Assembly: GCA_903847585.1 (NCBI GenBank)
Contig: CAINEC010000115.1
Location: 1 to 51,994, forward strand
Source of the DNA: an uncultured Bacteroidota bacterium
GTDB lineage: Bacteria > Bacteroidota > Bacteroidia > AKYH767-A > OLB10
Length of the DNA: 51,994 bases
Direction: 5' to 3'
Shown: positions 36,657 through 48,793 of the stretch, one piece after another
Layout of the letters: each line of letters starts with the position of its first letter
Numbering within the stretch: the first letter of the stretch is position 1
The notes under the pieces: generated by a model
The model's input: the letters and a program-made list of their open reading frames with translations, nothing else
What the model was told of the DNA's origin: nothing
The model's database searches: none
Position numbers and translations under genes: made by a program

Positions 36657-37097
36657 ATGATAAGAAATTATGGAACACTGTTACTCATATTATTAGTTTT
36701 TGCTTTTGGAGAATCTAAAAGCCAAACTAATGGGAAGTCGAATACAAATTTGCAAGAAGATAAAGTTTATACCTTCATCCCAGTAATGCCTCAGTTTCCA
36801 GGAGGTGAGGTTGCGATGTATGAGTTTATAATAAGTAATATTAAGTATCCTGTATTGGCAGTAGATAGCAATATTACTGGTAAGGTATTCGTCAACTTTG
36901 TAATTGACAAAGAAGGTAATGTTACCGATCCAAGGATTTTACGCGGGATTGGAGGTGGCTGCGACGAAGAGGTATTGCGTTTAGTGGCGTCCATGCCAAG
37001 GTGGACACCTGGAGAATTAGAAAGTGGAGAAAAAGTGAAGGTGTCATTCAATTTGCCAATCTCTTTTACTTTGAATGACCCGAAGCAAAACAAATAG
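36657..37097 (+). CDS. Small TonB C-terminal-domain protein
   Basis: 146 residues: a signal or anchor (MIRNYGTLLLILLVFAFGESKSQ), a short linker, then a TonB C-terminal domain at ~50-140 (PGGEVAMYEFIISNIKYPVLAVDSNITGKVFVNFVIDKEGNVTDPRILRGIGGGCDEEVLRLVASMPRWTPGELESGEKVKVSFNLPISF). It lacks the long proline-rich spacer of a full TonB and could be a soluble periplasmic variant. It lies before the thioredoxin/SusCD genes on the same strand with 59 bases and a weak hairpin between, so it may or may not share their promoter. Confidence 0.82.
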   Translation: MIRNYGTLLLILLVFAFGESKSQTNGKSNTNLQEDKVYTFIPVMPQFPGGEVAMYEFIISNIKYPVLAVDSNITGKVFVNFVIDKEGNVTDPRILRGIGGGCDEEVLRLVASMPRWTPGELESGEKVKVSFNLPISFTLNDPKQNK

Positions 37098-37156: not shown

Positions 37157-38242
37157 ATGAAATTGCGATATCTTTCTTCGTTTGTTTTAGTATTTCTTTT
37201 GCTTGCTAATTCACTTACGCTATATGCTCAAAATGATGAGGGCAGCAAAGTAAAGTGGATGACACTGCAAGAGGCCATGCAAAAAATGCAAACCCAGCAG
37301 CGTCCTGTTATTCTCGATTTCTATACCGATTGGTGTGGCTGGTGTAAGCAGATGATGAAAACTACCTATGCTAATGAAGGCCTCGCGGGGTATATTAACC
37401 AGAATTTTTATCCCGTAAGTTTTGACGCGGAGAGTAAGGATACCATCGAGTTCCTTGGAGAGATTTATAAGCCTACAGGAACTGAGAAGAGAGCAACGCA
37501 TGAGCTAGCGATTAAATTACTCAACGGAAGTTTGATGTATCCAACTACCATTTTTATGAATGGCTATGAAAAGGATAAAAATAAATTCAATCTGAATTTA
37601 ATAGTGCCCGGTTATTTGGATATTCCTAAAATAGAACCTATCCTCATTTTTACCCTCGAGAATGTTTACAAATCATGCAGCTATAACGATTTTGAAAAGT
37701 TGTACGAGAAAGCCATGAAGGATTCAACGATAATCGATCAAATAAAATTAACCAATTGGAAATCGGCAACCAATTACCTCGATGGACAACATTCGAATAA
37801 TAAAAAAACAATTATTTTACTCGAGGCTGATTTTTGTAATAGCTGTAAAATTATGAAGTCGACTAGCTTTACTGATTCGTTAAACTTAGAGTATTTACGA
37901 GAGAAATTTAATTGTGTAAACTTTAATGTGGTAGGTAATGATACCGTTAACTTTAAAGGACAAATAATAGCACCAGGAGCACAGTCAGGTTCTTTGCATC
38001 CATTTACGCAAGCAATCACGCGTGGCAATATTGGTTTTCCTGAGGTGGTGATTCTTGATGAGAAACTCGACATCCTCGATGTGATTCCTGTTTATTTAAA
38101 TCCAGAGGTGATGAATAACATTATACGTTTTTACGGAGAGAATATTCATCAGAAAAAATCGTGGACGGATTATATCAACGATTTGCAAGCTAAGAAAAAT
38201 CAGTCAGTAAAACCAGAACAAAAATCCAATGAAAAGAAATAA
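37157..38242 (+). CDS. Exported protein with two thioredoxin-like domains
   Basis: 361 residues with a signal peptide (MKLRYLSSFVLVFLLLANSLTLYAQ). The first thioredoxin-fold domain carries C60-G-W-C63 (DFYTDWCGWCKQMMKTT), a redox-active DsbD-gamma/thioredoxin_7-like site, followed by MYPTTIFMNGYE with the cis-Pro segment. The second has C227-N-S-C230 (LEADFCNSCKIMKSTSF) and its own GFPEVVILDE segment. The tail is Lys/Gln-rich. It overlaps the SusC gene by 14 bases, so it is translated with the SusCD operon. It would act in the periplasm as a disulfide reductase or isomerase, possibly for the Cys-containing T9SS cargo encoded downstream. Confidence 0.85.
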   Translation: MKLRYLSSFVLVFLLLANSLTLYAQNDEGSKVKWMTLQEAMQKMQTQQRPVILDFYTDWCGWCKQMMKTTYANEGLAGYINQNFYPVSFDAESKDTIEFLGEIYKPTGTEKRATHELAIKLLNGSLMYPTTIFMNGYEKDKNKFNLNLIVPGYLDIPKIEPILIFTLENVYKSCSYNDFEKLYEKAMKDSTIIDQIKLTNWKSATNYLDGQHSNNKKTIILLEADFCNSCKIMKSTSFTDSLNLEYLREKFNCVNFNVVGNDTVNFKGQIIAPGAQSGSLHPFTQAITRGNIGFPEVVILDEKLDILDVIPVYLNPEVMNNIIRFYGENIHQKKSWTDYINDLQAKKNQSVKPEQKSNEKK

Positions 38243-41200
38243 ATCCTTATTGGTTAAATTACTTTTCATTCTAATACCATTATTTTCTTGCATCCAGCTA
38301 AACGCACAATCGTTAAAGGTTAGCGGTGTAGTTTTATCTATAGATGATAAACAACCGTTGCCTTTCACAGTCGTCAATGTAAAAGGCACATCCATTTCTA
38401 CTGCTGCGAATGAAGATGGCAAATTTGAAATCACTATTCCGCATGCTAACGATACATTAATTTTTGTGATGGTTTCTATGCTGCGTGAACTTGTTCCTGT
38501 CAACGGTAAAACCAATCTTGTTGTTTATCTGAAAAAAGATAAAACAGAATTGAAGGAAGTGGTTGTTACCGCGCTTGGAATCAAAAAAGAAAAAAAGGCA
38601 CTCGGTTATGCAGTTCAGGAAGTAAAAGGAGAAGATTTACAAACTGCCAAAGATGCAAGTGTGATTAATCAGTTAGCTGGGAAGGTAGCGGGATTAAATA
38701 TTACATCTACTACGGGCGGACCAGGCTCTTCGAGTCGTATTGTGTTGCGTGGTGTGACTTCTCTATCGGGTTCTAATCAGGCATTGATTGTTGTTGATGG
38801 AGTACCAATTGAAAATAATACCAGCAATAACACTACTCAATGGGGTGGACGTGACTATGGGAATGGTATCAGTGATATTAATCCCGATGATATTGAATCG
38901 GTGAATGTGTTAAAAGGTCCCAATGCAGCAGCACTCTATGGTTCATTAGCTGCAAATGGTGTAATAGTGATTACTACCAAGAAAGGAGCGAAGGCTAACG
39001 GGATTGGAGTAACGTTTAATAGTTCTACCTCAGTGGAGCTTCCTAATATTCAAATTAAGTTTCAAGATGTGTATGGCGCTGGACGTAATGGGAAATTTGA
39101 AGGGCCTTGGGTTTTACAAGATGGAATTTACACTTATAACACAGTAAGTGCCTCTGCTTTTGGTAGCTGGGGACCAAAAATGTTAGGACAAACAATTAAA
39201 GATTGGGATGGACAAGTACGAAGTTTTTCTCCGCAGGCGGATAACTACAGTTCCTTTTTTCAAACAGGAATAACAGCAGTAAATAATGTTTCGTTAAGTG
39301 GTGGATCAGATAAGATGACTTATCGTTTATCGGCAGGAAATTTTAACACAAAAGATATTGTTCCTGGAACTACATTAAACCGTACTAATCTAACGGCACG
39401 TACAGCCGCTATGATTAGTGATCGCATTAGTTTGGATGTGGGAATAACCTATAGCAATCAAGTGGCTAAAAATCGTTTAGGCTTAGCGAATAGCTTTAGT
39501 GCTCCTCGTAACTATGTGATGATGCCTCGAAATATCAGCGCTTCTTCGTTAGAGAATAATCAGATGAATGCTGCTGGACAAGAGCAAACATGGTTCACCA
39601 ATTGGAACTGGATGAACAATCCGTATTGGTCGGTTAATTACGATTTGAACGAAGATACCCGCGATCGATTATTAGGAATTGCCTCGGTGAATTATAAAAT
39701 TCAGGATAATTTTAGTTTGATGGTGCGCACCAATGCGGATATTAATTTATTTCAAAACAATGATCGAGAAGCTTATAACAGTATTTCCAATTCATTGGGT
39801 TCTTATTCAAAAGGCTGGTCGAATGAAAAGCAATATCAAAGTGATTTCTTATTGAGTTATTCAGATAGTATTAATTCTGATATCTCTTTTTCTGCCAATC
39901 TAGGAGGAAGTACTTTGCAAAAGGAAAGTAATTCGTTTTCTTCACGTACTGACGGAGGATTAGCAATACCGTATTTCTATTCGATAGAGAACAGTGTTAA
40001 TCGCCCAACGGTAACAAATTTCATTTCTAAACGCCGTACAAATGGGTTATATGCCTTCGGACAAATTGCGTACAAAGAATTTTTATACTTAGATATTACT
40101 GCACGTAATGATTGGAGTTCTACCTTACCAAAAGATGCGCGTTCGTATTTTTATCCATCAGTAAGTACTGGATTTGTTTTTTCTGAATTAATGAAAAATG
40201 ATAAATCGAAATTTACATTCGGGAAGCTTCGTTTGTCGTGGGCGCAAGTAGGACGTGATACCGATCCGTATCGTGCCACGTTCAGTTATCCAACTGCAGG
40301 TTCTTTCAATGGTGCAACGATGTATCAATTAGATCCAACATTGCCTTTGCTAAATTTGAAACCAGAAATCACTTCCAACATTGAAGCAGGAACAGAATTG
40401 TATTTCTTTAATCGCCGAATAGGAGTAGACTTTACTTACTATCGTTCGGATACAAAAAATCAGATACTACCGGCTAGCGTATCCGCTACATCGGGATTTG
40501 TAAATGCAATTATCAATAGTGGAGAAATTTTAAATAAAGGTATAGAGGTGCAACTAAAAACAATTCCAATTGAGAAAACAAATTTCAAATGGAATTTAGA
40601 TATCAATCTGGCGCATAATAAAAACAAAGTTGTTTCTTTAACAGAAGGATTAGAAGCTTATCAGTTATTTTATCAATGGAACTTAACTATTGAAGCACGT
40701 CCCGGACATGAATATGGAGATATAGTAGGATATGGTATTAAGCGCGATGCTAATGGTAATAAATTAGTCGATGAACATGGAATGTACATTCGCGATGACA
40801 AACCAAAAGTATTGGGAAATTACAATCCGAAAATGACAGGTGGTGTTTACAATAACTTTACCTATAAAAATTTCTCGTTAGGTGTGTTGGTTGATTATCG
40901 AATCGGTGGACAAATGTTCAGTGGGACGAATATGTATGCGAGTGGATACTCTGGTAATCTTGAAAGCACCTTAGAAGGTCGTGATGCCTGGTATGCAAGT
41001 GAAGCGGCGCGTATTGCTGCGGGAGTATCTCCTGAAAACTGGGTGGCTACTGGTGGTTATTTAGCAGATGGAGTTACAGCAGATGGAAATCAAAATACAG
41101 TATATGTAAATCCTGAATTATATTGGGGACAATTTTCTGACTGGACGAATGAAATACACGAGCAATTTATTTATGATGCAAGCTTTGTAAAATTACGCGA

Positions 41201-41420
41201 GTTTACTTTCAACTATCGATTTAATAAAACAGTTACTGATAAACTACACATGAAAGGATTAAGTATAGCTTTTACAGGTCGTAATTTATGGTTGATTTAT
41301 AGCGGTGCTCCGAACATAGATCCCGAATCATCCTATACTAACGGAAACGGACAAGGGTACGAGATTTATTCATGGCCTACACGAAGAAGTATTGGATTTA
41401 ACATTAAAGTGACCTTGTAA
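38229..41420 (+). CDS. SusC/RagA-type TonB-linked outer-membrane transporter
   Basis: 1063 residues, typical for SusC. Order: signal peptide (MKRNKSLLVKLLFILIPLFSCIQLNAQ), CarboxypepD_reg-like domain (VSGVVLSIDDKQPLPFTVVNVKGTSIST, to ~110), the plug with LKEVVVTALGIKKEKKALGYAVQEVKGEDL and LRGVTSLSGSNQALIVVDGVPIENN, then the barrel (DVTARNDWSS-like ITARNDWSSTLPKDARSYFYPS is the SusC signature). It forms the importing barrel for oligomeric ligands delivered by its SusD lid, encoded 1 base downstream. The ligand is unknown; gene context suggests glycoprotein glycans or glycopeptides. Confidence 0.95.
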   Translation: MKRNKSLLVKLLFILIPLFSCIQLNAQSLKVSGVVLSIDDKQPLPFTVVNVKGTSISTAANEDGKFEITIPHANDTLIFVMVSMLRELVPVNGKTNLVVYLKKDKTELKEVVVTALGIKKEKKALGYAVQEVKGEDLQTAKDASVINQLAGKVAGLNITSTTGGPGSSSRIVLRGVTSLSGSNQALIVVDGVPIENNTSNNTTQWGGRDYGNGISDINPDDIESVNVLKGPNAAALYGSLAANGVIVITTKKGAKANGIGVTFNSSTSVELPNIQIKFQDVYGAGRNGKFEGPWVLQDGIYTYNTVSASAFGSWGPKMLGQTIKDWDGQVRSFSPQADNYSSFFQTGITAVNNVSLSGGSDKMTYRLSAGNFNTKDIVPGTTLNRTNLTARTAAMISDRISLDVGITYSNQVAKNRLGLANSFSAPRNYVMMPRNISASSLENNQMNAAGQEQTWFTNWNWMNNPYWSVNYDLNEDTRDRLLGIASVNYKIQDNFSLMVRTNADINLFQNNDREAYNSISNSLGSYSKGWSNEKQYQSDFLLSYSDSINSDISFSANLGGSTLQKESNSFSSRTDGGLAIPYFYSIENSVNRPTVTNFISKRRTNGLYAFGQIAYKEFLYLDITARNDWSSTLPKDARSYFYPSVSTGFVFSELMKNDKSKFTFGKLRLSWAQVGRDTDPYRATFSYPTAGSFNGATMYQLDPTLPLLNLKPEITSNIEAGTELYFFNRRIGVDFTYYRSDTKNQILPASVSATSGFVNAIINSGEILNKGIEVQLKTIPIEKTNFKWNLDINLAHNKNKVVSLTEGLEAYQLFYQWNLTIEARPGHEYGDIVGYGIKRDANGNKLVDEHGMYIRDDKPKVLGNYNPKMTGGVYNNFTYKNFSLGVLVDYRIGGQMFSGTNMYASGYSGNLESTLEGRDAWYASEAARIAAGVSPENWVATGGYLADGVTADGNQNTVYVNPELYWGQFSDWTNEIHEQFIYDASFVKLREFTFNYRFNKTVTDKLHMKGLSIAFTGRNLWLIYSGAPNIDPESSYTNGNGQGYEIYSWPTRRSIGFNIKVTL

Positions 41421-41421
41421 T

Positions 41422-42909
41422 ATGAAGCAAATAACTACAAAACGAATTGCAACTTTATTCTTGTGTTTGGTATTGGTTATTCCATTTGCTTGCAAGGATT
41501 CAATGGACGATTTAAATGTTAATCCGAATGCACCAACAAATACAAATCCTGATTATTTATTTACGTATTCAGTGGTTAAAGGAATGGGCAGTTATATTAC
41601 AAATGCGAATTTCAATTATTGGACCATCATGAACTGGAATATGTACTTCGCAACGTTGGGTGGAGTAGATGCAGGAAGAGAATATGATAGTAATGATGGA
41701 AAAGATGCTTGGTGGAATGAAGTCTATGCCCAAGGTTTGATTAATGCGCGTGAAGTGCAGAACCTTACTAACGGGAATGCCTATCTGATTAATAAAAACG
41801 CAATCGCTAAAATTTGGGAGTGTTATTTATTCTCGCAGCTAACAGATGCATTCGGAGATATCCCTTATTCACAAGCATTGAATGGTAAGAGCTTGAATTT
41901 ATCTCCGTCTTACGATAAACAATCTACGATTTATCCAGCTTTGATTAATCAGTTAAAGAATGCATCAGCATTATTAGATGTTTCAAAACCTACATTCGGA
42001 GGGAATAGTGATCCCATTTTTAAAGGCTCAGTAATTAAATGGCAGCAGTTTGCGAATTCATTACAATTACGATTAGCGATGCGTATATCCAACGTGCAGC
42101 CACAACTAACGCAGCAGGTGTTAACAGAACTCGTAGGACAGCCACTCTTACTAACCAATGCAGATAACGCTTATTTCCCTTACAATGGTGAGATAAGAAA
42201 TCCATTGTTTGATTTAATCAACAGCGGACAAAGTGGTGGAAGAACTTATCCAAGTAAATTTCTAATTGACTATTTGAAACTTACAAGTGATCCGAGATTA
42301 AAAGTATTTGCGCAATACACAACAGAGTCAATGATAATCGGATTTCCTGATTATGAAGGAGTCCCTAATTTAGTTCCTTCGGGATCATCCATCTGGAATA
42401 ATTACAACAGCGATGCAAGTGATGTATCAAAGATTGGAACTTGGTTCTTAAGGCAGGATGCTCCGGGAGTATTAATGTCGGCAGCGGAGGTTAATTTCTT
42501 ATTGTCTGAAGCTGCGCTAAATGGCTGGTGGTCGTTAGGCAGTCCGCAGCAATACTATTTTGATGGAATTAATTTAAGTATGCAGTCGTATCCTAACAGT
42601 TCTATTACAAGTACGCAAATTGCAAATTACCTTAGCGTTTGTCAGCCTGTATCGCTAGAGGGAATCATTACGCAGAAGTATATTTCATATGCATTTCAAA
42701 ACGGATTAGAGAGCTATAGTGAATATCGTCGAACAGGATATCCTGTGTTAACAGACTATTCCAATAATTCAATCAATTTAACTAATTTTCCAAACCGTTT
42801 AACCTATCCTGCGAAAGAGGCGAGTTTAAATGGTGCCAATTATAACCAAGCAATTATTCAACAAGGACCTGATATACCAACTACCAAAGTATGGTGGGAT
42901 GTAAACTAA
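41422..42909 (+). CDS. SusD/RagB-family surface lipoprotein (SusD-like_2)
   Basis: 495 residues. Lipoprotein leader ending in lipobox PFAC (C24), then KDSMDDLNVNPNAPTNTNPDYLFTYSV, the start of the SusD-like_2 (PF12771) class. The typical EVNFLLSEAALNGWW segment and the C-terminal YPAKEASLNGANYNQAI match that class, whose members often go with peptide or glycopeptide ligands. It forms the hinged lid over the SusC barrel. It follows SusC by 1 base and precedes the LamG gene by 6 bases, so all are one message. Confidence 0.92.
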   Translation: MKQITTKRIATLFLCLVLVIPFACKDSMDDLNVNPNAPTNTNPDYLFTYSVVKGMGSYITNANFNYWTIMNWNMYFATLGGVDAGREYDSNDGKDAWWNEVYAQGLINAREVQNLTNGNAYLINKNAIAKIWECYLFSQLTDAFGDIPYSQALNGKSLNLSPSYDKQSTIYPALINQLKNASALLDVSKPTFGGNSDPIFKGSVIKWQQFANSLQLRLAMRISNVQPQLTQQVLTELVGQPLLLTNADNAYFPYNGEIRNPLFDLINSGQSGGRTYPSKFLIDYLKLTSDPRLKVFAQYTTESMIIGFPDYEGVPNLVPSGSSIWNNYNSDASDVSKIGTWFLRQDAPGVLMSAAEVNFLLSEAALNGWWSLGSPQQYYFDGINLSMQSYPNSSITSTQIANYLSVCQPVSLEGIITQKYISYAFQNGLESYSEYRRTGYPVLTDYSNNSINLTNFPNRLTYPAKEASLNGANYNQAIIQQGPDIPTTKVWWDVN

Positions 42910-42915
42910 CCAATT

Positions 42916-44403
42916 ATGAAATTAAAAAGATTGTTACTAACGGCTACGGCATTACTAACTACTACTTTCTTGCAAGCACAAACAACTGCGGGAAATAGTT
43001 TTTATATCGATTATCCATCTTGGAATGCAGGAAGCAAGCCTCCTGTTTATTTTAACTGCGGCACCAATAATGTTTTAAATACAGGAAATGAGTTAACCAT
43101 GGAAGTGTGGGTAAGAATGTATAATTCAACCTGGAACCAGAAGATTATGGGTAAGGTAACTCCTGCATTTGATAATGGTTATTTGATGGCTGTTCAATTA
43201 GGACAGAATTACTCGGAAATCTGGAATCCAGGTGTGAATACTATTCAAGCAGGTTCTTCTCCAATTGATTCAGCGTGGGTGCATTTTGCAACAACGTTTG
43301 GTTCTGGTGGGCAAATGCTATGTTACATCAATGGTGTGCAAGTTGGTGGATTACCACTAACAGGAAATGCAATTGCTTCGAGTTCGAATCCTTTTGTAAT
43401 TGGAATTGCTCCTTGGGATTTAGTCAACTTTCAAAGTTTCGGAAACATTGATGAAGTCCGTTTATGGAGTGTAGTTCGCACGCCTGATGAAATTAAATCG
43501 ACTATGCACAAACATTTGCAAGGAAATGAAATTGGTTTAGTAGGTTATTGGGATTTTAATCAAACTACTGGAACTACATTACCTGATTTAACAGGTAACG
43601 GTAGCGATGGTACGTTAAACGCATCGGCAGCTTATTATTCTTGGGCTCCTTCATATGCTGCAGTAGGTAATGAGGCAATGTATTTAATGAATGATGTGAA
43701 TGGGGTTTGGTTTGGTAAAGATCCTTCCTTATATAACTATAGCACTACAACAAATGGATTAAATATTATTGCATCAATAGGTTCAAAGAAATTTGATTAT
43801 GCTGTTTATGGACATAATGATTCATCCGGAGTTTCGACTAGTTATTTACCCGCTAATGCACCGCTTGATTTTAAAAGAACATCTCGTGAATGGTTATTCA
43901 ATAAGGGTGGTAACGTGAATGCTGATTTATATTTCAATTTAAGTTATGCCGCAAATGGTGGTGATTCATTAACTAAAAACCTCCCTGTTCAAAATTACAC
44001 CTTACTCGTTCGTGATTCGATGAATCAAAATTATTCGGTTGCTGGAACAGCAAGTTCGTTATTAGCGAATGGAACAATCGTAAAATTTACAGCAGTGAAT
44101 CTTCAAAATAAATATTACGCAATAGGAGTGGGAAGTTCTCCACTTACATCTATACAGCAATTGAATCCAGATAATAAAGATATTTTGTTATTGCCTAATC
44201 CAACTAACGGCAACTTTAATTTATACAATGTTGCTGATGCTTCAATCATGATTTTTGATGCGAATAGAAAGTTAGTGAAGTCATTATACTCGAATGATAT
44301 TGCGATAAATTTTTCTTCGGATGATTTCGCTAATGGACTTTATTTCGTTCAGATTATTCAATCAGGAAAAGTATCATCAAAAAAATTAATGATTAATCGA
44401 TAA
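42916..44403 (+). CDS. LamG-domain protein with T9SS sorting tail
   Basis: 495 residues: signal peptide (MKLKRLLLTATALLTTTFLQAQ), a LamG/concanavalin-like jelly roll at ~25-240 (ELTMEVWVRMYNSTWNQKIMGK ... NIDEVRLWSVVRTPDEIKSTM ... GLVGYWDFNQTTG), an uncharacterised middle region (~245-410), and a T9SS type A sorting domain (~412-495) with LPNPTNGNFNLY and GLYFVQI. LamG folds bind sugars or proteins and this one lacks an obvious active site. Its LamG part is clearly related to those of the next gene, suggesting that both proteins recognise the same target. Confidence 0.85.
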   Translation: MKLKRLLLTATALLTTTFLQAQTTAGNSFYIDYPSWNAGSKPPVYFNCGTNNVLNTGNELTMEVWVRMYNSTWNQKIMGKVTPAFDNGYLMAVQLGQNYSEIWNPGVNTIQAGSSPIDSAWVHFATTFGSGGQMLCYINGVQVGGLPLTGNAIASSSNPFVIGIAPWDLVNFQSFGNIDEVRLWSVVRTPDEIKSTMHKHLQGNEIGLVGYWDFNQTTGTTLPDLTGNGSDGTLNASAAYYSWAPSYAAVGNEAMYLMNDVNGVWFGKDPSLYNYSTTTNGLNIIASIGSKKFDYAVYGHNDSSGVSTSYLPANAPLDFKRTSREWLFNKGGNVNADLYFNLSYAANGGDSLTKNLPVQNYTLLVRDSMNQNYSVAGTASSLLANGTIVKFTAVNLQNKYYAIGVGSSPLTSIQQLNPDNKDILLLPNPTNGNFNLYNVADASIMIFDANRKLVKSLYSNDIAINFSSDDFANGLYFVQIIQSGKVSSKKLMINR

Positions 44404-44426
44404 GCTAAAAACACACCAACCATACA

Positions 44427-47400
44427 ATGAAAAAATTTTACACCTTACTATTTGTTTTTGTTGCTTTGTTGATAAGCACCAACACAAATGCACAGTATCA
44501 CTTAAATCTTGATGGAACTAACGATTATGTTCGTGTTCCAACTTATGCATCATTGCAAGGAGCATCAGGAGTAACTGTTGAAGCATGGATTAATGCTACT
44601 GCATGGAAAACTCCGATCTATAAAGGAAGCGTTGTTTGTACTGGAAATAATATCGGACAAAATAATGGTTTCGATTTACGTGCAGCAGAGAATGGCAAAG
44701 CAGAATTTAATTTGAGTATTGCTGGTAACTGGACAACGGCTACATCAGCGCCCATTATGCAAACAGGAACATGGTATCATGTTGCTGGTGTATATTCTGG
44801 TGATTCCATCATGATTTACATCAACGGCGTTTTACGTGGATTAACAATCGTGAGTGGTGGAATGGTTCCTTCAACAGGAAATCTATGTATTGGTGAATCT
44901 CCAGGTTGGTTAGGTCGTTCATTCAACGGAAGAATTGATGAAGTTCGTTTTTGGAATTACGGAAGAACACAATCACAAATCACTTCAACAATCTGTTCAT
45001 CATTAACAGGAACTGAGCCTGGTTTAGTTGGTTATTGGAAATTAGATGCAACTAATGGAACGACAACAGCTATTAACTCTGTGGCTGGTGGAAACAATGG
45101 AATTTTAATTAATACTACGCTTGCGTCTGTATGGCAAGGTGGTGACTATACATGTACGCTGAGTAGTCCTGATGTGGGTGTGAGTGCTATCGCAGGACCA
45201 GCATCCAATTTCAATTTAACGAATGCAGAGCAAATTAGTGTGGTGGTTAGTAATTACTCAACTAATCCATTAACAGGTTTTCCGGTTAGTTATAAAATTG
45301 GAAGTAATCCAACTGTAACAGAAACGATGAATGGAGTGGTCCCTCCGTTTGGAACATACACTTATACTTTCTCACAAACGGCGGATTTATCCGTTTATCA
45401 AAACTATAACGTAAAGGCCTATACGAGCTTGTCAGGAGACGTAGTAGCTACGAATGATACCATTAATAAAGTCATTAGTAATTTTGCGACAGGAACTAAC
45501 TTTGGTGTGAACTTCGATGGATTAGATGATAAGATTATCATTAACAATGCTCCTCAACTAAATCCAACTTCAGCAATTACGGTTGAAACTTGGATTAATG
45601 CTTCTGCATGGAAGAATAGTATTTCTGATGGATCTATCATTGCGAAAGATATTAATGCTCCTAACAGAGGTTATATTTTACGTTGTGGAAATAACGGAAG
45701 CGTTGAATTCATGATCTCTGATAATGGTACATGGAAGTCGGCTTCATCACCATCTATTTTGTTAACGAATCGCTGGTATCATATTGCTGGTGTGTATGAT
45801 GGTAGCAATGTAATGTTATACGTGAACGGAGAGAAAGTAGCTTATACTCCTGCATTTTCTTTTTCACCATCACCAACTAATTTGTTTATTGGAGAAAGTC
45901 CAACTTATAGCGGAAGAACTTTCGCTGGTTCGATTGATGAAGTGCGCATTTGGAATATTGCAAGATCAGCAACGGATATTCAATCAAACATGACCACGAA
46001 TTATGCTGGGAATGAGCCAGGACTTGTAGCTTATTATAAATTAGATGAGGGGCTAGGCAATGCCGTTATAAATGATCAAACTGCAAATGCTAATTCAGGG
46101 ACATTAACAAGCTTTGTTTTAGGAAATGCTTGGGTTAGTGGGTATGAACTTATTCAAAATGATGTTACTGTTTTAGGATTAGATGCGCCTAATAATTTAA
46201 CAGCATTCACAGGTGCATCGCGTGTAAAAGTAAAAGTGAAAAATACAGGGTTTAATTCAGTGTCAAATATTCCTGTTTCTTATCGTGTGAACAATGGAAC
46301 AGCGGTGAACGATACTATTTACACAACACTTCAACCGAATCAGGTATACACTGCCTTGTTTAATAAAGTAGAAGATTTATCCGCATTAACAACATCAACA
46401 ATATCTGCACGTGCATCATTAGGAAATGATAATGACTATCGAAATGATTCATCTTACATTTCATTAACTAAGCCAAGTACAAGCAATACTATTGTAGCAT
46501 TTAACAATCTTCAGCATGACTTTGCGGCGAATGGACAAACACGTTTTGCAGATGTGATTTTTCCTGAAGGACCAGAACAATGGAGTCAGATCATTATGCA
46601 TGTATCTGTTGCTTGTCCAACTACAGGTTGTGACCCTTGGGATCAGGCTGGTAAAATTTCAATTTTCAAAAATGGACAAGAATATGAATTAGGAAGATTT
46701 ATTACTCCTTACGGAATGGCATGCGGTCCATGGGATATCGATGTAACAGACTTTAAAACATTGTTGGTTGGAAAGCAAAAGTTGCAATCGTTCATACAAG
46801 TATGGGGTGCTTCAGGTTGGTTATTAAGAGTAACATTTGAATTTATTGGAGGAGCTAATCCTTATCCTTTCCAAAAAATCACTCCGCTTTGGAATACCGA
46901 TTATCATATTTACGGTGATCCAACTATTCCATATACATTACCAAACTTCAATATTCCATTCGAAGCAAAAACAAAAACTTCTAATTTAAGAATGACAATT
47001 ACAGGTCACGGCCAAGGTAATACAAGTAATGCTGCTGAATTTTATAATGCTACACATAGTGTGAAGGTAAATGGTTCAACTGCATTTAGTCATAATGTAT
47101 GGAAGAACAATTGCGGTCAAAATTCCTGTGCTAATCAAAGTGGAACATGGACGCTTTCGAGAGCTGGCTGGTGCCCTGGACAAGATGTAACACCAATTGA
47201 GAACAATCTAACGGGTAGCATTACCCCAGGAACAACCTCTTCTGTTGGATACGCTCTTCAAACATATACTAATAACTTAAATACTGGATATAATGGTGGT
47301 AGTCATACGGAGCCTTATTTTAGAATACATGCCTATGTAGTTGAAAGTAGTGACTCAGCTCAAAATTTCTCTGACTACATTAATGCAACGGCTTCGAGAA

Positions 47401-47969
47401 TTACTGCACCTTCATTCGCTCCTCAATTAACCGCAAATGAATTGGTGAAAGTGATGGTAAAAAATTCTGGGTCTATTGATTTAATTCAACCAACAGTAAG
47501 TTGTTTTGTGAATGGAAATTTAATCGTATCAGAAACTCTTAATACTACAATTCTTGCAGGAGATAGTTTGGAATATACTTTTAGTCAAACGGCAGACTTA
47601 TCGCTTGTAAATGATTATACCATTCATGCTTTAATAACAAAGAATGGCGATGCCAATGCATCTGACGATATTGCAACAAAGCGCATTTTTCAGATTACTG
47701 GTATTAATGATATTAACAAGTCGATTAATATTTCTGTCATTCCAAATCCGAATAATGGTTCATTTACCTTGAAAGTAGATGATGCAATTGGTAAAGTGAT
47801 TGTAACGGTGTTGGATATCCACGGTAAAGAAGTTTATTCGTCTTCTGAAACAAATACTTCTGCAGTATATCAAACTCAAATCAATTTGAACAATGTGGCT
47901 AAACAAATGTACTTTGTGAAAGTGAGAACAGATAAAGGAATTACTATTCAAAAAGTAAGTGTTCAATAA
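44427..47969 (+). CDS. LamG-LamG-PNGase F-like secreted enzyme with T9SS tail
   Basis: 1180 residues. Order: signal peptide; LamG 1 (~24-237); CARDB/Ig-like spacer (~249-350); LamG 2 (~360-565); second spacer (~573-688); PNGase F N- and C-terminal domains (~697-975); third CARDB-like spacer; T9SS sorting domain with IPNPNNGSF (~1099-1180). PNGase F cleaves the Asn-GlcNAc amide of N-glycoproteins. Compared with the Elizabethkingia enzyme from memory, Asp60 is kept (D739 in CDPWDQ) and Glu206 is kept (E871 in NAAEF), but Glu118 aligns with Q791 (FIQVW). RAGWCPGQDV and the preceding NQSGTW also match PNGase F. Encoded in the SusCD operon; secreted or cell-surface attached. Confidence 0.85.
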   Translation: MKKFYTLLFVFVALLISTNTNAQYHLNLDGTNDYVRVPTYASLQGASGVTVEAWINATAWKTPIYKGSVVCTGNNIGQNNGFDLRAAENGKAEFNLSIAGNWTTATSAPIMQTGTWYHVAGVYSGDSIMIYINGVLRGLTIVSGGMVPSTGNLCIGESPGWLGRSFNGRIDEVRFWNYGRTQSQITSTICSSLTGTEPGLVGYWKLDATNGTTTAINSVAGGNNGILINTTLASVWQGGDYTCTLSSPDVGVSAIAGPASNFNLTNAEQISVVVSNYSTNPLTGFPVSYKIGSNPTVTETMNGVVPPFGTYTYTFSQTADLSVYQNYNVKAYTSLSGDVVATNDTINKVISNFATGTNFGVNFDGLDDKIIINNAPQLNPTSAITVETWINASAWKNSISDGSIIAKDINAPNRGYILRCGNNGSVEFMISDNGTWKSASSPSILLTNRWYHIAGVYDGSNVMLYVNGEKVAYTPAFSFSPSPTNLFIGESPTYSGRTFAGSIDEVRIWNIARSATDIQSNMTTNYAGNEPGLVAYYKLDEGLGNAVINDQTANANSGTLTSFVLGNAWVSGYELIQNDVTVLGLDAPNNLTAFTGASRVKVKVKNTGFNSVSNIPVSYRVNNGTAVNDTIYTTLQPNQVYTALFNKVEDLSALTTSTISARASLGNDNDYRNDSSYISLTKPSTSNTIVAFNNLQHDFAANGQTRFADVIFPEGPEQWSQIIMHVSVACPTTGCDPWDQAGKISIFKNGQEYELGRFITPYGMACGPWDIDVTDFKTLLVGKQKLQSFIQVWGASGWLLRVTFEFIGGANPYPFQKITPLWNTDYHIYGDPTIPYTLPNFNIPFEAKTKTSNLRMTITGHGQGNTSNAAEFYNATHSVKVNGSTAFSHNVWKNNCGQNSCANQSGTWTLSRAGWCPGQDVTPIENNLTGSITPGTTSSVGYALQTYTNNLNTGYNGGSHTEPYFRIHAYVVESSDSAQNFSDYINATASRITAPSFAPQLTANELVKVMVKNSGSIDLIQPTVSCFVNGNLIVSETLNTTILAGDSLEYTFSQTADLSLVNDYTIHALITKNGDANASDDIATKRIFQITGINDINKSINISVIPNPNNGSFTLKVDDAIGKVIVTVLDIHGKEVYSSSETNTSAVYQTQINLNNVAKQMYFVKVRTDKGITIQKVSVQ

Positions 47970-48793
47970 TGACAGTAAGAGAAAGATTTCTTGAAGATGG
48001 ATATGTGATTCTTCCTGATTTTAATTCCGATGAAGCATGTGATGCATTAATGGCTCGCGCTGAGAAATTATCTCGCGAGTTTGATTATAAAGGACATGCT
48101 TCCATTTTTCAAACTTCTGAGCAAACAAAAACAAGTGATGAGTATTTTTTAAATTCAGGAGGAAATATTTCATTCTTCTTTGAAAAAGATGCCTTCGATG
48201 AAAATGGCGAATTGAGAAATGATGTATTTCACTCTTTGAATAAAATCGGTCATGCGATGCATGATTTGGATGTGGTCTTTAATGATTTTACGCGTTCACC
48301 TCAGATGAAAAAGTTGGCTGCTGATTTAGAAATGGAAGATTGGTTAGTTATTCAAAGCATGTATATCTTTAAGCATGCAAAAATAGGTGGGGTAGTTGAT
48401 GTGCATCAAGATGCGAGTTTCTTGTATACTGAGCCTGCATCTTGCATTGGATTTTGGTATGCGTTAGAAGATGTTACTATTGAAAATGGATGTATGTGGG
48501 CAATGCCCGGAGGACATAAAACATCGTTGCGATCTTGGTTCAAACGAAAGGAGGGAGGTGGTACTGAAATGGAAATGTTAGATGAATCACCAATGAGTTT
48601 GGAGGGCATGATTCCGTTAGAAGTGAAAAAGGGAACATGTATCGTTTTAGATGGATATTTACCTCATTACAGCAAGCCAAATACAAGTGGTAAGTCGAGA
48701 CATGCCTATGCAATACATACAATTGATAAAAAGGCATATTATCCTGAAAGTAATTGGTTGCAACGGGAAATGTCAAACGTAAAAGGCTTTTGA
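47969..48793 (+). CDS. Phytanoyl-CoA dioxygenase (PhyH) family protein
   Basis: 274-residue double-stranded beta-helix oxygenase, iron(II)/2-oxoglutarate type. Metal ligands are H146-Q-D148 (DVHQDASFLYTEP) and the distal H233 (GYLPHYSKPN); R of GKSRHAYAIH would hold 2-oxoglutarate. It resembles the PHYHD1 branch rather than the ectoine hydroxylases. The ATG overlaps the TAA of the PNGase-like gene by one base (TAATG), so the two are translationally coupled, an unusual partner for a secreted glycan amidase. No signal peptide, so it works in the cytoplasm. The substrate is unknown. Confidence 0.85.
   Translation: MTVRERFLEDGYVILPDFNSDEACDALMARAEKLSREFDYKGHASIFQTSEQTKTSDEYFLNSGGNISFFFEKDAFDENGELRNDVFHSLNKIGHAMHDLDVVFNDFTRSPQMKKLAADLEMEDWLVIQSMYIFKHAKIGGVVDVHQDASFLYTEPASCIGFWYALEDVTIENGCMWAMPGGHKTSLRSWFKRKEGGGTEMEMLDESPMSLEGMIPLEVKKGTCIVLDGYLPHYSKPNTSGKSRHAYAIHTIDKKAYYPESNWLQREMSNVKGF

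What the first reader, a model, noticed from the sequence alone, without database searches (positions are those of the whole stretch)
37157..48793. SusCD operon with a LamG/PNGase F-like T9SS enzyme, double thioredoxin and PhyH dioxygenase
Six genes run without meaningful gaps (overlaps of 14 and 1 bases; spacers 1, 6 and 23). A secreted N-glycan amidase-like enzyme with a lectin-like partner, a dedicated importer, a periplasmic two-domain thioredoxin and a cytoplasmic oxygenase is not a gene set I recognise as a described system. SusD-like_2 and PNGase F suggest glycoprotein processing: bind, deglycosylate, import, modify.
Basis: partly seen in the sequence, partly recalled or inferred. Interest (0 to 1): 0.68.

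Follow-up and report, generated by a model that had tools for sequence, protein, structure and literature searches.

The report
PNGase-type N-glycan harvesting operon
These six bacterial genes centre on a conserved four-gene unit that most likely cuts sugar chains off glycoproteins at the cell surface and imports them; two further genes (a thioredoxin and an oxygenase) were added only in this bacterium's close relatives.

Summary
The six ORFs and their spacings are exactly as described, but they are not one six-gene system. A four-gene core, SusC-SusD-LamG-PNGase, is shared with other Bacteroidota down to about 50% (SusC, PNGase) and 32-38% (LamG) identity. The two-domain thioredoxin is joined to it only in the window's genus, and the PhyH oxygenase only in five of seven genus members.

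The PNGase domain is a genuine PNGase F relative (30-32% identity, model Z 33) with both essential acidic residues kept (D739, E871). It belongs to a well-supported Bacteroidota clade, mostly SusCD-linked, whose members have lost the paired R61/E118 of PNGase F (here Q740/Q791).

Some relatives carry GH92, GH38, beta-mannosidase-type GH2, GH20, ROK kinase, LacI or NagB/PIG-L genes alongside. The window's own genome holds a separate GH20-GH2-GH92-glycosylasparaginase-family cluster. This points to N-glycan harvesting, analogous to the Gpd complex of Capnocytophaga but with a T9SS-exported amidase in place of a lipoprotein endoglycosidase.

The claim that thioredoxin and oxygenase belong to the system is not supported. 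New variant of a known kind of locus; moderate interest.

The parts
38229..41420 (+). SusC: TonB-dependent outer-membrane importer (core gene 1)
   Evidence: TIGR04056 E 2.8e-187; nearest solved structure BT_2264, E 4.8e-119, next best 1.5e-42
41422..42909 (+). SusD-like lipoprotein, lid of the importer (core gene 2)
   Evidence: PF12771 E 1.8e-79; N-terminus ...VIPFAC, lipobox-like
42916..44403 (+). LamG surface protein with conserved middle region and T9SS tail (core gene 3), proposed glycan/glycoprotein binder
   Evidence: PF13385 and PF18962; 12-member full-length family, 32-67% identity to the window protein; jelly-roll model matches a Bacteroides putative carbohydrate-binding protein 4dqa E 5e-11
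44427..47969 (+). Multidomain T9SS-exported PNGase: two LamG domains, PNGase F domain at residues about 689-985, T9SS tail (core gene 4)
   Evidence: PF13385 x2, PF09113 2.1e-19, PF09112, PF18962; PNGase F 3pms E 2.5e-34; model pLDDT 88, Z 33.2 to 3pms
46641..46643 (+). Codon of D739, equivalent of PNGase F catalytic D60
46644..46646 (+). Codon of Q740, equivalent of PNGase F R61 (substituted)
46797..46799 (+). Codon of Q791, equivalent of PNGase F E118 (substituted)
47037..47039 (+). Codon of E871, equivalent of PNGase F catalytic E206
37157..38242 (+). Exported two-domain thioredoxin-like protein overlapping SusC by 14 bases; genus-specific neighbour, not core
   Evidence: Pfam; CGWC 60 and CNSC 227; adjacent in 5 of 5 other genus members with flank, unlinked in G016 and G036
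47969..48793 (+). PhyH-family Fe(II)/2-oxoglutarate oxygenase, PHYHD1-like; lineage-specific neighbour, not core
   Evidence: PF05721 E 2e-43; PHYHD1 2opw E 2e-56, H146, D148, H233, R244 aligned; absent from G003, G005, G016, G036

Best explanation
The core (38229-47969) is an N-glycan harvesting unit. The 1180-residue PNGase crosses the outer membrane by the type IX system and hydrolyses the GlcNAc-Asn amide of glycoproteins or glycopeptides at the cell surface. Its own LamG domains and the separate LamG protein hold the glycoprotein. SusD closes over the released glycan (or short glycopeptide) and SusC imports it by TonB. In the periplasm, exoglycosidases encoded in a separate locus (GH92, GH2, GH20 and a glycosylasparaginase-family enzyme on contig C120) break it down. 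Shown by computation: genes, domains, fold, retained D60/E206 equivalents, T9SS tails and SprA, conserved core, glycosidase context. Inferred: catalytic activity, the glycan as the imported ligand, the binding role of the LamG protein, and co-regulation with C120. Thioredoxin may help keep the cysteine-bearing exported enzyme folded; PhyH is probably a passenger.
For: PNGase F homology and fold. D60 and E206 equivalents kept in 82 of 83 rows of the alignment; in zebrafish Ngly2, active despite distant homology, mutating either abolishes activity (PMC12753239). Four-gene core in the genus, in G036/L153 and in L100, L108, L109, L110, L113, L115, L118, L130, with near-contiguous spacing. Context in relatives: L118 LacI-MFS-ROK-GH2 beta-mannosidase-type-GH92; L109 MFS-ROK before and NagB/PIG-L after the core; L124 and L126 GH92 (L126 also GH20); L112 three GH92; L121 and L101 GH38; L108 and L115 LacI. 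Own genome: NagP-like MFS-GH20-GH2-GH92-Asparaginase_2 cluster and SprA.
Against: R61 and E118 of PNGase F are both Gln here. From memory, E118Q in PNGase F is nearly inactive (Kuhn 1995, not readable here). No glycosidase lies in the window beside the operon, and glycosidases flank only 6 of 38 clade loci against 1 of 42 controls (Fisher p 0.049, rows not independent). SusC is nearest to BT_2264, solved with a peptide. No NagB-family gene was found in nine genomes.
Confidence: 0.68

Rival explanations
1. The operon harvests peptide rather than glycan: the PNGase strips N-glycans so that proteins can be degraded, and SusCD imports oligopeptides.
For: SusC is far closer to BT_2264 (E 4.8e-119) than to levan or RagA importers, and a BT2263/64-peptide complex is reported (PMC7782687). 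The SusD matches do not point to one ligand. No NagB family member in nine genomes.
Against: Relatives pair the same core with sugar regulators, kinases and mannosidases, hardly with peptidases, although L094 has an M1 peptidase nearby. The peptide in BT2263/64 need not be its natural ligand.
Confidence: 0.2
2. The PNGase-like domain has changed function: with R61 and E118 replaced it acts on another amide-linked glycan, or only binds glycans.
For: The paired loss is shared by a supported clade (99/99) of 39 sequences: Q/Q in 31, Q/R in 3, V61 in 4. [quoted passage not shown] Gln fits neither class.
Against: D60, E206, W59, the His at 191, W/F at 120 and R248 are kept under divergence. PNGases with G or D at 118 are active (PMC9522356).
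Confidence: 0.15
3. All six genes form one functional system in which thioredoxin and PhyH act on the substrate or products.
For: Overlaps of 14 and 1 bases suggest cotranscription and translational coupling. Thioredoxin is adjacent in 5 of 5 other genus members with flank.
Against: None of the eight distant cores has a recognisable thioredoxin beside it. Thioredoxin homologues of 44-45% lie in unrelated contexts in G016 and G036. PhyH is absent from G003 and G005, which keep the other five genes, and 66-73% homologues in G031, G033, G038 and G040 lie on contigs other than those of their PNGase genes.
Confidence: 0.08

Closest known systems
Gpd complex (PUL5) of Capnocytophaga canimorsus (PMC3128124)
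   Same: SusC, SusD, a surface N-glycan-releasing enzyme and a ConA-like lectin/glucanase-superfamily protein in one operon; capture, release, import, periplasmic trimming by enzymes some of which are encoded elsewhere.
   Different: [quoted passage not shown] here the enzyme is a PNGase F-type amidase, and it and the LamG protein carry T9SS tails. No homology between the enzymes is claimed.
Bacteroides PNGase loci (PMC9522356)
   Same: PNGase genes beside susC/D (B. sartorii), or in loci with GH92, GH29, GH3, GH130 and SusC/D in several species.
   Different: Those PNGases are predicted periplasmic and have D or G at position 118; no LamG partner or T9SS tail is described for them in the passages read.
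PNGase F (E. meningoseptica), PNGaseL and PNGaseDo (PMC12381499)
   Same: Same fold and same two essential acids; PNGaseL and PNGaseDo have T9SS tails.
   Different: R61 and E118 of PNGase F are Gln here; most of the genes in that survey were reported as orphans, not SusCD-linked.
BT2263/BT2264 SusCD of B. thetaiotaomicron
   Same: Closest solved SusC by far.
   Different: Its known co-crystal ligand is a peptide, and no PNGase is mentioned for its locus in the passages read.

Membership tests
PNGase F superfamily | Two-jelly-roll PNGase fold over a full domain | tested here: met
   Model pLDDT 88; Z 33.2, rmsd 2.2 over 283 residues to 3pms; next unrelated rows about Z 9
PNGase F superfamily | Catalytic Asp60 and Glu206 equivalents | tested here: met
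   D739 and E871
PNGase F superfamily, active-site motif of the published survey (PMC12381499) | Aromatic-D-positive/aromatic motif (W59-D60-R61); described as broadly conserved, not as obligatory for the superfamily | tested here: not met
   W738-D739-Q740; Gln is neither positive nor aromatic. Superfamily membership is kept by fold, descent and catalytic acids; PNGase F-like specificity is not claimed.
PNGase F superfamily | Hydrolysis of the GlcNAc-Asn amide | not testable with these tools
   Needs an enzyme assay
SusCD glycan-utilisation locus (PUL) | Adjacent SusC and SusD homologues | tested here: met
   TIGR04056, PF12771
SusCD glycan-utilisation locus (PUL) | Carbohydrate-active degradative enzyme in the locus | tested here: inconclusive
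   PNGase-like amidase present, but no glycoside hydrolase in the window operon; glycosidases adjoin some relatives only
Gpd-type deglycosylation complex | Endo-beta-N-acetylglucosaminidase as the releasing enzyme | tested here: not met
   No such domain in the six proteins; works like Gpd, not a member
Type IX secretion substrate | C-terminal sorting domain, and a T9SS in the genome | tested here: met
   PF18962 in both proteins; SprA at G000:C67

The most novel reading that the evidence does not exclude
The SusCD-linked clade (39 sequences, Bacteroidota) is a distinct PNGase type in which the R61/E118 pair was replaced together, giving an enzyme with a new N-glycan core specificity or a different way of positioning the substrate, evolved together with a dedicated importer and a LamG partner; the four-gene operon is ancestral to the clade.
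Probability: 0.35. Interest if true: 0.6.

Novelty: new variant of a known kind. Interest (0 to 1): 0.45.

Why it matters
It links PNGase F-like enzymes of environmental Bacteroidota, most often described as orphan genes, to a dedicated outer-membrane importer and a conserved LamG partner. It also picks out a large untested PNGase clade with an altered active site, a source of candidates with unusual N-glycan specificity. The comparison separates the core from the two genes that only look like members.

Tried and rejected
Six-gene system: rejected by gene distribution. A thioredoxin in the genes upstream of SusC in distant cores: they are LacI, ROK and a metallophosphatase instead. TonB_C gene at 36657-37097 as a seventh member: no match near the core in relatives. 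Marinimicrobial LamG-PNGase pairs as orthologues of the window pair: those LamG proteins share only the LamG part and have a different C-terminal half that reads like dockerin repeats. Fold of the middle region of the LamG protein: the whole-protein model was dominated by the jelly roll, so nothing can be said about it. A search for papers on E118Q mutants found none.

Full report
Observation. Pfam and NCBIfam confirm each domain call: thioredoxin-type domains, SusC (TIGR04056), SusD-like_2 (PF12771), LamG plus T9SS tail, two LamG plus N-glycanase N and C domains plus T9SS tail, and PhyH. The thioredoxin protein has two CxxC motifs, at residues 60 and 227. The genome encodes SprA, so a type IX system is present.

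What is conserved. The window lies in a 3.0 Mb genome (G000). I fetched the neighbourhoods of PNGase relatives and compared gene order. Within the genus, the full six-gene order is seen in G002, G004 and G006 as in the window; G001 is cut by its contig end but keeps PNGase-PhyH; G003 and G005 have thioredoxin-SusC-SusD-LamG-PNGase without PhyH. G036, of the same order, has SusC-SusD-LamG-PNGase only. Eight further, distant loci (L100, L108, L109, L110, L113, L115, L118, L130; MAGs labelled Bacteroidetes, Bacteroidales or Salinivirgaceae) have the same four genes in the same order with gaps of -53 to +113 bases. There SusC is 48-54% and SusD 41-45% identical to the window, the LamG protein 32-38% over its length. 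In L107 the SusD and LamG genes also precede the PNGase, but the sequence has runs of N there.

The two extra genes. The thioredoxin protein has 44-45% relatives in G016 and G036, on stretches with no SusCD-PNGase genes nearby. PhyH is absent from the genomes of G003, G005, G016 and G036; relatives of 66-73% identity occur in G031, G033, G038 and G040 on contigs other than those of their PNGase genes. So both look like recent neighbours. Their overlaps with the core suggest cotranscription, not shared function. PhyH resembles human PHYHD1 (E 2e-56) and keeps the aligned H146, D148, H233 and R244, so it is probably an active oxygenase of unknown substrate.

The PNGase. The domain (residues about 689-985) matches PNGase F at E 2.5e-34. 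The AlphaFold2 model, made from 27 aligned sequences, has pLDDT 88 and pTM 0.88; its best solved matches are all PNGases, with PNGase F at Z 33.2, rmsd 2.2 over 283 residues, zebrafish Ngly2 at 28.4 and the plant-type PNGase 7zgn at 26.9, against about 9 for the first unrelated row. D60 and E206, the two residues whose mutation abolishes activity in Ngly2, are D739 and E871. R61 and E118 are Q740 and Q791.

An altered active-site clade. In an alignment of 83 rows, 43 rows have R61, 40 of them with D or E at 118; 31 rows are Q61/Q118, 3 are Q61/R118, and the V61 rows have F, V, D or a gap. A maximum-likelihood tree puts all Q61 rows and the V61 rows it includes in one group of 39 with 99/99 support, within Bacteroidota. 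By my count, 29 of these 39 (the window included) have SusC or SusD within three genes, against 2 of 42 other relatives; the Fisher value is 4e-11, but the rows are related, so it only describes a strong pattern. The window's group and the distant four-gene cores fall on the two sides of the first split inside the 39, so the four-gene order is probably ancestral, and Saprospiraceae, which have PNGase-SusC-SusD or SusC-SusD-PNGase with a different SusC type, changed it (inference). Another SusC-SusD-PNGase set with a PNGase of about 830 residues, outside this comparison, exists in L045, L046, L048, L049 and L050.

Context for substrate. L118: core, then LacI, MFS, ROK kinase, GH2 with mannosidase Ig domains, GH92. 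L109: MFS and ROK before the core and a glucosamine-6-phosphate isomerase/PIG-L protein after it. L124 and L126: PNGase-SusC-SusD-GH92, and GH20 in L126. L112: three GH92. L121 and L101: GH38. L108 and L115: LacI directly upstream of SusC. The frequency is modest, 6 of 38 clade loci against 1 of 42 controls, and many contigs are short. The window's own genome has, on contig C120, NagP-like MFS-GH20-GH2-GH92-Asparaginase_2-CutC; GH92 and GH20 genes occur in all nine genomes examined, and G036 has the same type of cluster with an alpha-L-fucosidase and a ROK kinase. Asparaginase_2 is the family of glycosylasparaginase (established knowledge), and a PNGase operon with an asparaginase, mannosidase and fucosidases is reported in Runella zeae (PMC12381499). 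This set fits stepwise N-glycan breakdown.

Mechanism and doubts. The closest working analogue is Gpd of Capnocytophaga canimorsus: SusC, SusD, an N-glycan-releasing enzyme and a ConA-like lectin-superfamily protein, all in one surface complex, with trimming enzymes encoded elsewhere (PMC3128124). The window core has the same logic with a T9SS-exported amidase. What is imported is open: SusC is closest to BT_2264, whose complex holds a peptide. Whether Q740/Q791 alters activity is open; PNGases with D or G at 118 are active, but the E118Q mutant of PNGase F is, from memory, nearly dead.

Verdict. A real, conserved N-glycan-type SusCD locus with a PNGase of an unstudied active-site clade; a new variant of a known kind, plus two neighbour genes that do not belong to the conserved unit.

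Noticed in passing
L176:4783-15646 (G000 contig C120): A separate N-glycan-type cluster in the window's genome: NagP-like MFS, GH20, GH2, GH92, Asparaginase_2, CutC; the same type of cluster in L177 with GH29 and ROK kinase.
   Followed up: partly
L051:4439-7918 (G000 contig C34): A second PNGase-like protein of 1159 aa, about 35% identical over part of the domain, not beside SusCD. Proteins of this size and of about 740 aa are widespread in the class; in my alignment their N-terminal half (D60 region) did not align, so their activity is unclear.
   Followed up: no
L129:428-2832, also L132, L133, L134, L136: In Marinimicrobia (Fidelibacterota) a LamG protein of about 480 aa, ending in what reads like dockerin repeats, sits directly before a PNGase-like protein of about 560 aa, without SusCD.
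   Followed up: partly
window:36657-37097: A secreted TonB_C-domain protein lies 59 bases upstream of the thioredoxin gene on the same strand, but it is not found near the core in relatives.
   Followed up: partly
window:48857-50650: Downstream of PhyH lie an unassigned 316-aa protein (also in L035) and a FISUMP-domain protein (present after PhyH in all five genus members that have PhyH).
   Followed up: partly
L109:8945-18811: The GWF2_38_335 locus carries two different PNGase-like genes (731 and 1151 aa), with a NagB/PIG-L fusion and a TPR-LytTR protein between them.
   Followed up: no
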